From NCBI GenBank assembly GCA_004294005.1, contig RDZP01000010.1:1-41304 (forward strand): 41,304 bases of DNA, given 5' to 3'. Each line of letters begins with the position of its first letter. Position 1 is the stretch's first letter. Source of the stretch: Cytophagia bacterium (GTDB lineage Bacteria; Bacteroidota; Bacteroidia; Cytophagales; Microscillaceae). Below the pieces are notes generated by a model that made no database searches, was not told where the DNA came from, and saw only the letters and a program-made list of their open reading frames with translations. This document shows positions 23,909-41,304 of the stretch, in pieces. Position numbers and translations under genes: made by a program.

Positions 23909-26653
23909 ATGCAAAGTTGGACAAACTTAATAGAAAACAAATTAGAAAAGCAAAATAATAAAATTGCAAAAATTAGCCTCGAAAAAGAAACTATCGCTTA
24001 TTTTGAAAAAATAAAACAAAATAGAGTGCTAAAATCACTCACAGGCAACGAGGAAATTGTGAGGGCTTTTTTGATAGATAGGCTTGTAAATGATTTAGAA
24101 TATAAACCCGAAAATTTGGAAATTGAAAAAGAATATGCCATAAAAGGCGGACATGGAAAACTTAATCCAAGAATTGATACATTGGTAAAAGACGAACAAG
24201 GAAACCCTTTTTTTTTCATAGAAATAAAAGCACCCGAAAAATACGAAAAAGATAAAAGCGAAATAGAAGGACAACTTTTTGCCTTAGCGCAAGCAGAAGA
24301 AAAAGACCATAAAACCAAAGTAAAATATTTGGTGTACTATACCTGTGAGTTGGTTGAAAATGAAATCGTAGATAAAGCAATTATTATTGATTTTCAAAAA
24401 TATAAAACTTATACAGATTGGGAAAATGAAGGCTTTATCTCGATTGGCACAACTTTAACCGCTGGATACGGAGAACCTAAAAAACAAGCCCTTACAAAAG
24501 GAAATGTAGCACACGATTTGAGAAAAAAAATAAACAGAGATGAAATTGAAAGTTTGGGCAGAAATTTACATAATGTACTTTGGGGTGGCGGTGGCACAAA
24601 TGACAGCGAAATATTTTATTCTTTGGTTAATATCATTTTGGCTAAAATACAAGATGAATATGAAAAAGAAAACGGACAAGAATACGATTTTCAAATATAC
24701 CAATATGGTAACAACATAGAAAGCCAAGAAAAAATATATAATCGTGTAAATGCACTATACAAAAAGGCTTTGAAAGAGCAACTAAATGTATCAGAACAGC
24801 AAAAAATTGACGAGGATAGCGTTATTAACCGCAATAAATTTCCACTTAATAAACTTACTTATACCGTTCAAGCATTAGAAAATCTTTCTTTTTTGGAAGG
24901 TAGAAGTTCATTAGATGGTACAGATATTTTGGGGGATTTTTTTGAAAGTATCACTCGTGATGGCTTCAAACAAAACAAAGGTCAATTTTTTACGCCTACG
25001 CCTATTGTTGATTTCCTATTGTATGCCTTGCAATTAGACAATTTAGCCATTGAAAGGCTAAATACAGATAGAGAACTGCCTTTTATCATAGACCCATCAG
25101 CAGGAAGTGGGACGTATATCGTGCAAGCCATGAAACTCATTACTAAAGAACTCAAATACAAACAAGCGCACAAAATAAAATCAAGTAGACAAATAAAAGA
25201 TACTTTTGAAAATTTGTTTTTGCCTGATTATAAAGAAAATAAATGGGCAAAAGAATATTTGTATGCCTCTGAAATCAATTTTGATTTGGGTACTGCCTCC
25301 AAAGTAAATATGATATTGCATGGCGATGGCTCTACTAATATTTTTGTGAAAGATGGTTTGTTGCCTTTTCGCAATTATGTAAAAGATAATGCGATGAGTG
25401 CTTTAGAAGTAAATTCTCCAGATAGTTTGTATGACAACAAAGAAATAAACGGAAAATTTGATGTGGTGGTAAGTAATCCGCCTTTTAGCGTAGATTTAGA
25501 TACACAAACACAAAGAGAAGTAAAAAATACCTTTGTGTTTGGCGACAAAAAAAATTCTGAAAACCTTTTTATAGAACGTTATTATCAACTCCTCAAAGAA
25601 GGCGGAAGATTGGGCGTTGTATTGCCTGAAAGCGTTTTTGATACCACCGAAAATAAATATATTCGTATGTTTATTTTCAAATATTTTGATGTAAAAGCAG
25701 TAGTAAGCCTGCCACAAATTACCTTTGAGCCTTTTACAAGCACCAAAACAAGCCTACTTTTTGCCCAAAAGAAAACCAAAAAACAAGTAGAACAATGGAA
25801 TATAATTTGGGATAAATACGGGAATGAATGGAGTTTGCTCAAAACACGCATAACCGATTATATCAAATATTTTGTAAATAACGAAAAACTGAACAAAAAA
25901 TGGGCGAAAGATGTTGTAACTGATATCGAACAAAATAACATTGATAATATTTTGCAAAACATTTATCGTTTTTTGAAAGATTATCTCACGCAGGAATACA
26001 AAACGCTTACCATAACCGAAATCTTAACCAAATACGCTGACGAAATAGAAAATATTAGCAAATACGACAAAGATACACACGTTTTTGGGTTTTATAATGC
26101 TTGGTGGGTTTTTGGGGAAGTTACCAAAGAATTGGACTTGGATATATTTATGGCTGAGGCTGAAAATGTAGGGTACAAAAAAACCAAACGTGGCGAAAAT
26201 CCTATGCCAAACGACCTTTACGACTTGGAACACGCACCTACCAAACTCAATACAAATGAGATTTTGGAAGAATATAAAACCAATATTCATAAGCAAAAAG
26301 AACAACAAACCATTGACCTCGCAGAACTTGCCACAGCACAAGCAAAATATGCAGAAAAGGAAAATGAAACCCTCAAACAAAAAATTGAAAAACTCAAAAA
26401 AATCATTGAAAGTAAAAGTAAGAAAATCGAAAAATTGGAAAACGACCACAAAATAGTTGTTCATATTTTTGAAACCTATTACCAAAATAACCTGCTCAAA
26501 AATGAATATGCAGAACGCACCGAAAACGAACTACTACAACATTTCAAAAAAAATGGCTTGCTCGAACACCGCAAAAGCAAGGATATTGTACTCCGAAAAA
26601 ATAATCTTCTCACAATTTTAGACTACATTAGAAACGAAGTATCATGGCAGTAA
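23909..26653 (+). CDS. Fused restriction nuclease (HSDR_N-like) / N6-adenine DNA methyltransferase (HsdM-like)
   Basis: N-terminal RIDTLVKDEQGNPFFFIEIKAPEKY...QLFALAQAEE (PD-D/ExK-type) then DPSAGSGTYIVQAM and VVSNPPFSVD (MTase); coiled-coil C-terminus. Confidence 0.88.
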   Translation: MQSWTNLIENKLEKQNNKIAKISLEKETIAYFEKIKQNRVLKSLTGNEEIVRAFLIDRLVNDLEYKPENLEIEKEYAIKGGHGKLNPRIDTLVKDEQGNPFFFIEIKAPEKYEKDKSEIEGQLFALAQAEEKDHKTKVKYLVYYTCELVENEIVDKAIIIDFQKYKTYTDWENEGFISIGTTLTAGYGEPKKQALTKGNVAHDLRKKINRDEIESLGRNLHNVLWGGGGTNDSEIFYSLVNIILAKIQDEYEKENGQEYDFQIYQYGNNIESQEKIYNRVNALYKKALKEQLNVSEQQKIDEDSVINRNKFPLNKLTYTVQALENLSFLEGRSSLDGTDILGDFFESITRDGFKQNKGQFFTPTPIVDFLLYALQLDNLAIERLNTDRELPFIIDPSAGSGTYIVQAMKLITKELKYKQAHKIKSSRQIKDTFENLFLPDYKENKWAKEYLYASEINFDLGTASKVNMILHGDGSTNIFVKDGLLPFRNYVKDNAMSALEVNSPDSLYDNKEINGKFDVVVSNPPFSVDLDTQTQREVKNTFVFGDKKNSENLFIERYYQLLKEGGRLGVVLPESVFDTTENKYIRMFIFKYFDVKAVVSLPQITFEPFTSTKTSLLFAQKKTKKQVEQWNIIWDKYGNEWSLLKTRITDYIKYFVNNEKLNKKWAKDVVTDIEQNNIDNILQNIYRFLKDYLTQEYKTLTITEILTKYADEIENISKYDKDTHVFGFYNAWWVFGEVTKELDLDIFMAEAENVGYKKTKRGENPMPNDLYDLEHAPTKLNTNEILEEYKTNIHKQKEQQTIDLAELATAQAKYAEKENETLKQKIEKLKKIIESKSKKIEKLENDHKIVVHIFETYYQNNLLKNEYAERTENELLQHFKKNGLLEHRKSKDIVLRKNNLLTILDYIRNEVSWQ

Positions 26654-28064
26654 AATGGTTTAAGGTGAAATTATCAGATTTGAATTCTGAATATAGCCTA
26701 AGAAATGATTTTAAATATATAAACTCTTTTATAAAAGGGAATAATAGTTTTTATTCTTATAAAGAAGTTTTTGATATTATTTCATATACACCTATCAATT
26801 TAAACGAGTTAGAAGAATTTTTGTATGCAGAAATTGGAGATGTATCAAAAAACGGTGAAGTAATACCTACAAAATTATCTTTTTTGGATAGGAATGAAGA
26901 AAATGAAAATTTATTCAAAAAAATTGAAAAGGTGATATCATAAAACCATTGAAAGGAGATATTTTAATTTCTAAGATAAGACCTTATTTAAATAAAATAG
27001 TTTTTATTGATAAAGAAAATGAAAACGTATTTTTTACAAAAGCATTTATTCATATCAGACCAAAGGTAAATGCAGAAATTTTATATTTTGCATTGAGAAC
27101 ATTATTTTTTAATCAATTAAATGCTGTTTCTCGACAAGGGAAAGGATATCCAACTTTGAAAGAAGATGATATAAAATCCATTCGTTTTTCTAAATATATT
27201 ATTGATAGTTTGGAAAAACATAATGATACTATATTGATGAAAATAAATCAACTAAAAACTGAAATTGAGCGATTAAAAAACTCAAAATTAAAGCCTTTGG
27301 ATATTATTAATCAGGTTTTTGGGGAGGAATTTGGGTTTGATTGGCAAGAATTTGAGAAATTGAAACAGCAAAAAATATTCTTTTCAAGTTTATCTGAATT
27401 TGCCAATAACATTGATTGTAGAATGGGTTTAAGATTTCATAATAAAGCAGGAAAATATTTATATAGTTTTTTGTGTTCTAAAACAAAAAGAAATATAAAA
27501 GACTTTATTGATGAACCTATTGTTTTGGGGCAAAGTGTTTCCCCAAACGATTATGATGATGAAGGAGAATATTTTTATATTGCTATGTCAAATATTAAAA
27601 CGTATGCTTTTGAGGAGGAAGATTGTAAAAAAGTTTCAGAAGAATATGCTTTAAATAACATAAAGAAAATAGTTAAAAAGGGTAATATTTTGTTAGCACG
27701 TTCTGGCGAGGGTACTATTGGAAAAGTTGCATTAATTGAAGATGAAGAAATAAACGCTATTTTTGCTGACTTTACGCAACGAATAAGATTGATAAATTAT
27801 AATGTGCTACTTGCTTATTATTATTTTCGGAGTGATTTCTTTCAATATTTAGTTTATATGCACAAAAAAGGTTTAGGAAATAATACTAATATTTTTCCAA
27901 GCCAAATTCAACATTTTCCTATTCCAGATTGGGAAGAAACCAAACAAAACGAAATCGTATTACGCATAAAAACGCAAATAGATGCCCAAAACTTGGTGGA
28001 TTTGGCAATAGAAGCCAAGCAACAAGAAATAAATGAGATAATAGAAAATGCTATAAAAGAATAG
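26644..28064 (+). pseudogene. HsdS-type specificity subunit interrupted by a frameshift (fragments 26644-26943 and 26949-28064)
   Basis: Second fragment carries GDILISKIRPYLNK and coil/TRD2; a 1-nt insertion in the AAAA run before GGTGAT near 26937-26940 would restore ...KKIEKGDIIKPLKGDILISKIRPYL. Confidence 0.8.
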
Positions 28065-28218: not shown

Positions 28219-28407
28219 ATGACAACATTCAATAAAGAACAACTTATCGCAAAAATAAATACTTTGCCTAATGAAAAATTAGCACAAGTGGCGGAACTCG
28301 TTGCAAAACTTACCAAAGAAAAAGAAGATGAAAAACAAGATGAATTTAGTTTGTTAATCGAAACAACCAATAAAAAATATGAAAAAGTGTGGGAGGCGTT
28401 GGCATAA
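28219..28407 (+). CDS. Putative antitoxin of Doc-type TA module (62 aa)
   Basis: Small charged protein ending KYEKVWEALA; TAATG overlap with the Doc start. Confidence 0.65.
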   Translation: MTTFNKEQLIAKINTLPNEKLAQVAELVAKLTKEKEDEKQDEFSLLIETTNKKYEKVWEALA

Positions 28408-28793
28408 TGAAATATCTTACAAAAGAGCAAATCATAGCCATTAATCATAATCAAGTGAAAGTATTTGGTGGTAATTTTATCCCACCTGATAATTTTTTGC
28501 ACGAAGAAAATTTGGATTATCTCATCGAAGCTGTTACCGCTGAAATGTTTGGCGAGTCGATTTATCCTGAAATTTATCAAAAAGCAGGCGTTTATATGTT
28601 TAATATCATTTGTAACCATATTTTTCAAGATGGGAACAAAAGGACAGGATTACAAACATCTATTATTTTTTTACTTCTCAATAAAGTAGAAATAAAAGCA
28701 GACGAAGATTTGCTCATCAATTTCACTATTTCTGTCGCATCAGGTGAACAAACTTTGGAACAGGTGCAAGAATGGTTTAAAAATCATATATGA
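28407..28793 (+). CDS. Fic/Doc family toxin (death-on-curing)
   Basis: HIFQDGNKRTG matches the HxFxDGNKRTG Fic/Doc motif; ATG at 28407 preferred over the track's GTG at 28389. Confidence 0.87.
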   Translation: MKYLTKEQIIAINHNQVKVFGGNFIPPDNFLHEENLDYLIEAVTAEMFGESIYPEIYQKAGVYMFNIICNHIFQDGNKRTGLQTSIIFLLLNKVEIKADEDLLINFTISVASGEQTLEQVQEWFKNHI

Positions 28794-28819
28794 TGTTTTT
28801 CTCAAAATATAGGAAGAAA

Positions 28820-28840
28820 AAATTTGTATTTGAGTAGGTA
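28820..28840 (+). repeat. Right copy of direct repeat (R3), AAATTTGTATTTGAGTAGGTA
   Basis: Exact 21-bp match to the last codons and stop region of carB at 23783-23803. Confidence 0.85.
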
Positions 28841-28944
28841 AAAAATTTTATTTTCCTAAAAAAAATCAGTCTATTTTTATCTTTTTTTTATGCACGTATT
28901 TCTCTATCTTTGCACTTTGATTATAAATTGAATAGCAACGAATA

Positions 28945-28977
28945 TGTTAAACCTTAAATTAGCCACCGACCGTTACA
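28945..28977 (+). pseudogene. miaE: Displaced first 11 codons of miaE (MLNLKLATDRY)
   Basis: In frame with PRWVDIAEKNIEEI at 30326 once the TnpB element is removed. Confidence 0.8.
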
Positions 28978-29074
28978 TAAAACTTACACAAACTTATACA
29001 TTTGCTGTTTACTTCCTGTTTCATTGCGTCCCCTTGCCGTTCGGCTTGGGTGTTTCGACGCTCCGCAGAGTGGG
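28978..29074 (-). ncRNA. Putative omegaRNA 3' region / right end of the TnpB element
   Basis: GC-richer segment between the tnpB stop and the right end with nested stem GCGTC-CCC-tt-GCCG-tt-CGGC-tt-GGG-...-GACGC (29026-29061). Confidence 0.6.
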
Positions 29075-30160
29075 CTAACTGACCACTTGTTTAGCAAGAT
29101 TTACACTTGCATTCAAATCTCTATCTATTCTCAAACCGCATTTTTCACAATGATAAACACGGTCTTTTAAGGTTAAATTTTCCTTTTTATGCCCACAATT
29201 TGAACATATTTTGGAACTCGCAAAAAAACGATTGACTACTACTAATTTTGAACCATACCATTCGCATTTGTAAGTTAATTGCCTGCGAAACTCATAAAAT
29301 CCACCATCTAAAATCGCACTCGATAATTTGTGATTTTTACTCATGCCTTTCACATTTAAGTCCTCAATGGCTATCTTTTCGTGGTTTTTGGAAAGATAAG
29401 ACGTTAATTTGTGTAAAGCATCTTCACGAATACAAGCAATTTTATAATGTAATTTTGCTACTATTTTTTGTTGTTTGTAATAATTTTTTGATTGCTCTTT
29501 TTTGCCTTTTTGAAACTTTTTAGATAATTTTCTTTGCTCAATTTTTAACTTTCTTTTATAAATTTTGTAAGGTCTGCGATTTTCAAAAGTCATTCCATTC
29601 GATAAAGTTGCTAAGGTTTTTATGCCCAAATCAACACCAACAAAACTATGTTTTTTGAATCTAATTTTTTGTGTTTGATGTTCCATTTTAAAACTCACAA
29701 ACCAAAAATCTGCTTGCCTTGAAATGCTTACATTTTTGATATTTTTTACATCTTTTATTTTTTCACTCAATTTTATCCAACCAAAATGAGGTAATTTAAT
29801 GCGATTTTTTTTGACTTCAATATTTCCCTCTAAATAAAAACTATCTTTTCTTCCTTTTTTCTTAAATTTTGGATATTTGCTAACTTTTTTAAAAAATCTT
29901 TGAAAACCTGTATCCAAATCTCGCAAGGCTTGTTGTGGTGCGCATTTCGAAACTTCGTAATACCAATCGTATTTACTTTTTACTTCTGCTACTAATTTTT
30001 TGTGCAAATCAATGCCTGTAGGTCGTTTTTCTTTGTTTTCAAAAGCTTTATTACATACATCAAGTCCCCAATTATAAGCGTGTCTTGCCACACCTGCGTG
30101 TTTGAGTGCAAGTGTTTTTTGCTTATTATTGAGTTCTAAACGAATTTTAAGGCTTTTCAT
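29075..30160 (-). CDS. tnpB: RNA-guided endonuclease TnpB (OrfB)
   Basis: GVDLGIKTLA, IAIEDLNV, CSNCGHKK...CEKCGLRIDRDLNASVNLA: apparently intact RuvC D-E-D and zinc finger. Confidence 0.93.
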   Translation of the reverse strand: MKSLKIRLELNNKQKTLALKHAGVARHAYNWGLDVCNKAFENKEKRPTGIDLHKKLVAEVKSKYDWYYEVSKCAPQQALRDLDTGFQRFFKKVSKYPKFKKKGRKDSFYLEGNIEVKKNRIKLPHFGWIKLSEKIKDVKNIKNVSISRQADFWFVSFKMEHQTQKIRFKKHSFVGVDLGIKTLATLSNGMTFENRRPYKIYKRKLKIEQRKLSKKFQKGKKEQSKNYYKQQKIVAKLHYKIACIREDALHKLTSYLSKNHEKIAIEDLNVKGMSKNHKLSSAILDGGFYEFRRQLTYKCEWYGSKLVVVNRFFASSKICSNCGHKKENLTLKDRVYHCEKCGLRIDRDLNASVNLAKQVVS

Positions 30161-30295
30161 CTATGTTTTTTATTTGAGCAAAAATAAGTGATTTTCTTAT
30201 AAAATGTAAATATTTTCTTATTTATTTTTTAAAATACTTTAAAACTTATATATTTTACATCAAAAAATGATTAAAATGTATAAGTTTATCTAAAA

Positions 30296-30880
30296 ATGTT
30301 CAGATATTTGTTTGCTGATTGTTACCCTCGATGGGTAGATATTGCAGAAAAAAACATAGAAGAAATTTTAATTGACCACGCTTTTTGCGAACAAAAAGCA
30401 GCATCAAGTTGTATTTCTTTGATTGTGCATTATCCACAATTAGAAAAATTAGTTGAAGTGCTTACGCCTGTTGTTACAGAAGAATGGGGACATTTTAGAA
30501 TGGTTTTGAAGGAAATGAAAAAAAGAAATATTGCATTGACACAAAAAAGAAAAGATGACTATGTATTACAACTATTGACTTTGGAACGAAAAAATGGAAC
30601 GCCCAACCAAAGACTAATGGATAAACTTCTTATCAATGCTTTGATTGAAGCAAGAAGTTGTGAACGTTTTAGATTGCTTTCTTTGCATATTGCAGACGAA
30701 AACCTAAAAAGTTTTTATCACGAATTGATGATTTCCGAAGCAAATCACTATGTTAATTTTATCGAATTAGCAAAAGAATATTCACCAAAACAAGAAGTAG
30801 AAAAAAGATTTGAAGAAATGTTAGAAGCAGAAGCAAGCATTCTACAAAATTTGGAAATACGAAAAGACAGAGTGCATTAA
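30296..30880 (+). CDS. miaE: tRNA-(ms2io6A)-hydroxylase, N-terminus replaced by element-encoded residues
   Basis: PRWVDIAEKNIEEILIDHAFCEQKAASS, EEWGHFRMVLKEM, EARSCERF, EANHYVNFIELA di-iron ligands. Confidence 0.88.
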   Translation: MFRYLFADCYPRWVDIAEKNIEEILIDHAFCEQKAASSCISLIVHYPQLEKLVEVLTPVVTEEWGHFRMVLKEMKKRNIALTQKRKDDYVLQLLTLERKNGTPNQRLMDKLLINALIEARSCERFRLLSLHIADENLKSFYHELMISEANHYVNFIELAKEYSPKQEVEKRFEEMLEAEASILQNLEIRKDRVH

Positions 30881-30935
30881 AAAAAGGTAAAATGGCTTCA
30901 GTAAGCCTGAAATTATAGACCAATATTGTAATACC

Positions 30936-30982
30936 AAAAAAGAGAGAAAAACTTTGGAATACCTTGTTTTTTCTCTCTTTTT
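30936..30982. terminator. Intrinsic terminator (bidirectional) between miaE and bcp
   Basis: aaaaaagagagaaaaac...gttttttctctcttttt. Confidence 0.8.
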
Positions 30983-31060
30983 AAATTTGTACCTTGTCCA
31001 AACTCAATAATTACCTACAATTATTTTAATTTTATTTCTAATTTTTCGACAATCAGAGTT

Positions 31061-40967: not shown

Positions 40968-41284
40968 AATGATAAATATTAATTCGATTTAATTATTTTT
41001 TTCACAAAAATAAACAATAATTATAAAAAAACTAAATTTATTGATAATTTATTTTTTAGAAGTAATATTTTGAAGTGGTTTTTATCTTTTTTTTGATAAT
41101 AAGTATCCGTTAGTATTTAGTTTATATTATTATTGAATTTGCTAAAATTGACCCAACTGGTCATAACTTTGTAAAAAAAAGTTGTAACGAAATAATATTT
41201 TGCAACCCCAACTGGCTTAAGTCTATAAAAAAATCAAAACTATCGCAAGTTTAGCGAAGCGTAACTTGTGATTTTGTATTGATA

Positions 41285-41300
41285 GAAGTCTCCAGACTTC
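41285..41300. repeat. Palindrome gaagtct-cc-agacttc at the window end, part of a repeat-rich tail
   Basis: Perfect 7-bp arms; preceded by cccaactgg direct repeats (about 41152 and 41208). Confidence 0.5.
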
Positions 41301-41304
41301 ACCA

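What the first reader, a model, noticed from the sequence alone, without database searches (positions are those of the whole stretch)
28945..30345. Solo-TnpB element disrupts miaE, with an exactly reconstructable target
ATG TTA AAC CTT AAA TTA GCC ACC GAC CGT TAC (28945-28977) joined to CCT CGA TGG GTA GAT (30326 onward) restores MLNLKLATDRYPRWVDIAEKN, a normal MiaE start. GTTAC occurs at both junctions. In tnpB orientation the element follows GTAAC and ends in GTAAC, which makes GTAAC a candidate TAM/target pentamer. No TnpA is encoded, so it probably relies on a trans transposase.
Basis: partly seen in the sequence, partly recalled or inferred. Interest (0 to 1): 0.7.

Follow-up and report, generated by a model that had tools for sequence, protein, structure and literature searches.

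The report
Transposase-less IS607-type TnpB insertion in miaE

Summary
All 29 uninterrupted miaE N-termini that I read run ...TDPRWV, including a same-genus MLNLKLATDPRWVDIAQKN. The true empty site is GAC-CCT-CGA (ATDPRWVD), not ATDRYPRWVD, so both GTTAC copies belong to the element. In tnpB orientation: ATCGAG[GG]TAACAATC...TTTTATGTAAC[GG]TCGGTGGC, with a shared GG core. All 14 left ends examined follow GGG, and 26 of 29 right ends stop exactly at CGG before unrelated flanks. A second copy, inside a same-genus gene, restores an ORF by the same rule. GG-core insertion is the signature of IS607 serine transposases. A same-genus genome carries an intact IS607 TnpA directly upstream of a close TnpB homologue, and two further copies share one tnpA deletion at different sites, so tnpA-defective copies move. 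The right end encodes a covarying RNA resembling RAGATH-18, the known guide-RNA scaffold of IS607 TnpBs. No Y1 or serine transposase was found in this 80%-complete genome. miaE may survive: an ATG inside the left end opens an in-frame 194-aa MiaE. New member of a known kind; modest interest.

The parts
28970..30326 (-). Whole element in tnpB orientation including both GG cores (body 28972-30324); excision of 28970-30324 leaves one GG
   Evidence: Boundaries from uninterrupted miaE of relatives and from conserved LE/RE limits in other copies
30325..30329 (-). Left flank/TAM side 5'-GAGGG, ending in the GG core (30325-30326); only the GGG is constant among copies
   Evidence: GAGGG is one of two TAMs reported for IS607 TnpBs in PMC11061315
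30161..30324 (-). Left end, starts TAACAATCAGC; holds the ACATTT-type end motifs and the presumed tnpB promoter
   Evidence: similar left ends in G009, G152 and G001 copies
29075..30160 (-). tnpB, 361 aa, RuvC residues D177, E266, D348 present, zinc ribbon intact
29013..29069 (-). RAGATH-18-like reRNA scaffold (helix 1 at 29061-29057 with 29030-29026)
28970..29074 (-). Right end after tnpB, ending ...TTTTATGTAAC plus GG core (28970-28971)
   Evidence: 26 of 29 related right ends stop at the same GG
28950..28969 (-). Predicted 20-nt guide TCGGTGGCTAATTTAAGGTT, taken from miaE codons 2-9 (antisense)
   Evidence: position relative to the right end as in ISFba1/ISXfa1; sequence; inferred
28944..28969 (+). 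Separated 5' end of miaE (MLNLKLATD without the last base)
30325..30880 (+). miaE body (PRWVDIAEKN...)
   Evidence: Pfam MiaE 161 bits
30296..30880 (+). In-frame 194-aa ORF that starts at an ATG inside the element's left end (MFRYLFADCY) and reads into the miaE body

Best explanation
A tnpA-less, non-autonomous IS607-type element. An IS607 serine transposase supplied in trans (inferred) inserted a circular form by recombination between its GG and a GG within GGG on the minus strand of miaE at codons 9-10 (GAC CCT). TnpB with the right-end reRNA is an RNA-guided nuclease whose guide is the adjoining miaE sequence; it should cut re-created empty sites (GAGGG-TCGGTGGCTAATTTAAGGTT) and so favour retention of the element (inferred from the family). 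Shown here: the GG core and empty site, the conserved ends of the family, an autonomous relative with an IS607 TnpA, movement of tnpA-deleted relatives, a covarying guide-RNA scaffold, and an intact catalytic triad.
For: Empty site matches 29 relatives' miaE. All 14 left ends examined follow GGG and 26 of 29 right ends stop at CGG with unrelated flanks; GGG occurs at 0.4% of positions. A second copy restores an ORF by the same rule. Intact MerR-Resolvase TnpA, NF033518 215 bits, three bases upstream of a tnpB in the same genus, and an 80% identical TnpA upstream of a G152 copy. Two G001 copies share one tnpA deletion at different sites. RAGATH-18-like RNA in this and four related copies, with compensatory changes at 8 of 24 pairs. 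GG-core mechanism: PMC6188088, PMC4058570, PMC10711439.
Against: No IS607 TnpA or other resolvase-domain protein was found in the window's own genome, though it is only 79.8% complete. RAGATH-18 scores are below the gathering cut-off. NCBIfam's IS200_TnpB model scores higher than IS607_TnpB, neither over its cut-off. TAM-reading residues differ from ISFba1, so nuclease activity and TAM are inferred.
Confidence: 0.92

Rival explanations
1. One reading: a solo-TnpB element inserted beside a GTAAC pentamer that is both target and TAM (IS200/IS605 style, Y1 TnpA in trans).
For: GTTAC at both junctions; the best NCBIfam score is to the IS200_TnpB model.
Against: Relatives' miaE lack the two codons it requires; other copies lack GTAAC at the left end and share GGG; no Y1 TnpA in the genome; the associated TnpA in relatives is a serine recombinase.
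Confidence: 0.03
2. The element is IS607-type but now a fixed fossil: TnpA is lost from this lineage, and TnpB persists only by neutral delay or for another role.
For: Only one full copy and no serine recombinase found in the genome.
Against: The tnpB ORF and catalytic triad are intact, the ends keep the family motifs, tnpA-deleted relatives did move, and the genome is 20% incomplete.
Confidence: 0.3
3. miaE is simply knocked out by the insertion (against: the element supplies a start codon and MiaE is still made).
For: The native start and first nine codons are cut off; no clear promoter was identified in the left end reading towards miaE.
Against: A 194-aa ORF opens at ATG 30296 in frame and keeps the whole Pfam MiaE stretch from profile position 15; no stops or frameshifts; dN/dS about 0.09 and no excess replacement on this branch, which a recent insertion would also give.
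Confidence: 0.5

Closest known systems
IS607 family (IS607, IS1535, ISXfa1)
   Same: GG crossover dinucleotide, (G)GG target, no longer duplication, tnpA(serine)-tnpB order in relatives, reRNA at the right end
   Different: This copy has no tnpA
ISFba1 TnpB with RAGATH-18 reRNA (8IAZ; PMC11061315)
   Same: Best natural PDB match (187.5 bits); RAGATH-18-like scaffold after tnpB; GAGGG on the TAM side
   Different: Shorter right end (about 105 nt against a 187-nt scaffold), sub-threshold RAGATH-18 score; K80, K83 and N121 replaced by C73, Q76 and G112; other copies share only GGG
IS200/IS605 (ISDra2 TnpB)
   Same: Homologous TnpB (171 bits); Gln at the position of ISDra2 Q80, going by the correspondence given in PMC11061315
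   Different: No Y1 TnpA in genome or element; GG core instead of insertion beside a fixed motif
IStrons
   Same: TnpB elements inserted inside genes
   Different: No group I intron found, and the element lies antisense to miaE

Membership tests
IS607 element | Insertion at a GG dinucleotide shared by target and element ends, without longer target duplication | tested here: met
   Empty sites from relatives and a second copy; 14 left ends and 26 of 29 right ends
IS607 element | MerR-type serine transposase TnpA within the element | tested here: not met
   Absent in this copy and not found in the genome; present in sister elements of G001 and G152. So the claim is a tnpA-less derivative, not an autonomous IS607
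IS607 TnpB with RAGATH-18 reRNA | RAGATH-18 RNA downstream of tnpB | tested here: inconclusive
   33.6 bits, below the gathering score 44.9, but at the same place in five copies and supported by covariation
IS607 TnpB with RAGATH-18 reRNA | TAM AGGAG or GAGGG | tested here: inconclusive
   This copy has GAGGG; other copies CAGGG, TGGGG, AGGGG, GTGGG, TAGGG, TTGGG
Active TnpB nuclease | RuvC D-E-D triad | tested here: met
   D177, E266, D348 align with ISFba1 D194, E290, D371
Active TnpB nuclease | reRNA-guided DNA cleavage | not testable with these tools
   Needs an interference or TAM depletion assay
IS200/IS605 element | Y1 (HUH) TnpA in the element or available in trans | tested here: not met
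   No PF01797 match in the genome; controls rang
IStron | Group I intron in the sense of the host transcript | tested here: not met
   Only RAGATH-18 found in 28500-31000; the element is antisense to miaE

The most novel reading that the evidence does not exclude
A Cytophagales clade of IS607-type TnpBs with its own TAM reading (GGG, with Gln where ISFba1 has Lys83), whose left end often carries an outward ATG in frame with a target CCC codon, so that some insertions leave the host gene expressed with a swapped N-terminus.
Probability: 0.2. Interest if true: 0.4.

Novelty: new member of a known kind. Interest (0 to 1): 0.22.

Why it matters
It is a clean, internally controlled example of telling IS607 from IS605 insertions when only tnpB remains: shared letters alone (GTAAC) gave a wrong target, while uninterrupted relatives and sister copies give GG. 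It also supplies a directly testable guide, target and TAM, and shows that tnpA-deleted IS607 copies have moved in a related genome.

Tried and rejected
GTAAC as target or TAM: rejected. Y1 transposase in trans: none found. IStron: no group I intron. Nuclease-dead TnpB (TldR-like): triad intact. Transferring the ISFba1 TAM by residue homology: the residues differ, so only the flanks support the TAM; GGG is constant, and the GA before it would match by chance about 1 time in 16. Two right-end copies in this genome (C114, C122) looked like sister insertions but are about 55-60-bp right-end pieces joined to an unrelated repeat; they add two GG-ended right ends and no left end. The L103 and L106 insertion sites were not usable as further ORF-restoration tests: no gene is clearly interrupted. 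Assembly chimera: unlikely, because the two junctions together give a perfect GG-core empty site in one gene.

Full report
Observation. The insert in miaE is real. The only recognisable protein gene in it is a 361-aa TnpB on the minus strand (29075-30160), with OrfB_IS605, zinc-ribbon and HTH domains. The body of MiaE lies just beyond the far junction.

The empty site. I compared this with miaE in relatives: 47 of 57 genomes searched have the gene, and the N-termini of 29 uninterrupted copies were read. All run directly from D to PRW (some are on the opposite strand in the printout). The same-genus G002 reads MLNLKLATDPRWVDIAQKN, and G001 has the same nucleotides, GACCCACG, at the site. Removing 28970-30324 here gives MLNLKLATDPRWVDIAEKN. 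The RY pair, and so both GTTAC copies, came with the element.

The ends. In tnpB orientation the junctions are ATCGAG[GG]TAACAATC and TTTTATGTAAC[GG]TCGGTGGC, with empty site ATCGAG[GG]TCGGTGGC. All 14 left ends examined in related genomes and here begin right after GGG. The right end stops exactly at CGG in 26 of 29 copies, with unrelated sequence beyond. GGG occurs at only 0.4% of positions in this window, so this is not chance. GTAAC is not constant at the left end. A second insertion, L104 in the same-genus genome, interrupts a gene whose reading frame is restored by the same GG rule (...NDMVDIDPQIQVTQERELDFLKKI...).

What moves it. Insertion at GG without duplication, with (G)GG preferred, is what was measured for IS607 (PMC6188088) and modelled as a serine-recombinase crossover (PMC4058570; PMC10711439). 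I tested the prediction that autonomous relatives carry an IS607 TnpA. G001 has a 199-aa TnpA (NF033518 215 bits, cut-off 110; MerR and Resolvase domains) ending three bases before tnpB, and G152 has an 80% identical one upstream of its tnpB. That G001 copy's tnpB is itself broken by an internal duplication with a frameshift. Two other G001 copies share one internal tnpA deletion (residues about 45-140 missing) yet lie at different sites with different flanks, so a tnpA-defective form was mobilised, presumably in trans. In the window's own genome no IS607 TnpA, no resolvase-domain protein and no Y1 transposase was found, but that assembly is only 80% complete.

The RNA. Rfam gives a RAGATH-18 match at 29013-29069 (33.6 bits, E 6e-4, below the gathering score of 44.9), and the same match in four related elements at the same place. 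On 15 right ends, 8 of 24 pairs show changes on both sides that keep pairing, and helix 1 pairs in all sequences (GCGTC/GACGC, GTGTC/GACAC, GTACC/GGTAC, GCCTC/GGGGC). On the counts of paired cells, both-sided changes and covariation score, no shuffle and no slid control reaches this; related sequences can inflate such counts, but the slid controls keep relatedness. RAGATH-18 RNAs are the reRNA scaffolds of IS607 TnpBs (PMC11061315), and the structure of that system, 8IAZ, is the best natural PDB match of this TnpB. The TAM side here is GAGGG, one of two TAMs reported there, but other copies share only GGG and the TAM-reading residues differ, so I claim GGG, not GAGGG. The predicted guide is TCGGTGGCTAATTTAAGGTT, the antisense of miaE's first codons. 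It would direct TnpB to the empty miaE allele; that step is inferred from the family.

Is miaE dead? The left end has an ATG at 30296 in frame with the body, giving MFRYLFADCY|PRWVD... (194 aa), almost the native length. The coding body shows strong constraint (dN/dS about 0.09 against both same-genus genes) and no excess of replacement changes on this branch. This fits either a retained protein or a recent insertion. By eye the outward frame is open in some related left ends (L105, L100) and closed in others (L082, L092; sequences), so it is probably a lucky by-product of the ACATTT-type end motif.

Class. By its ends and relatives this is a tnpA-less IS607 derivative. NCBIfam's IS200_TnpB model scores above its IS607_TnpB model, neither over cut-off, so the protein model alone would have misled.

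Noticed in passing
window 41200-41304; L009 130-292; L164-L166; G002: An intergenic repeat of about 160 bp (core CACTCTCCGAGTGGTGAAGTC...AAACTTGCG...CAGTTGGGG), 54 matches in this genome and 48 in same-genus G002 but none in G001; often in inverted pairs bracketing short stretches. At C114 and C122 it is joined at the same point to a right end of this IS607 family, and at C178 to a shorter one. Nature unknown.
   Followed up: partly
L104 1556-4447 (same-genus genome G001): The copy with intact IS607 tnpA has a broken tnpB, the complement of the tnpA-deleted copies. It interrupts an ORF whose restored frame looks like an Rpn/YhgA-like nuclease by eye (no Pfam match to the 3' part). Here too the left end supplies an in-frame start, TTG.
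   Followed up: partly
window 30296-30325: Outward-facing ATG in the left end in frame with the interrupted gene; the same register is open in left ends L105 and L100 and closed in L082 and L092.
   Followed up: partly
window 23909-28064: Type I restriction-like methylase gene (N6_Mtase, HSDR_N_2) followed by an HsdS-like reading frame split by an apparent frameshift near 26930 (26644-26943 and 26949-28064; no Pfam match to either piece).
   Followed up: partly
window 28219-28793: A Doc/Fic-type toxin gene (TIGR01550) overlapping a small upstream ORF of 62 aa, a likely toxin-antitoxin pair.
   Followed up: no
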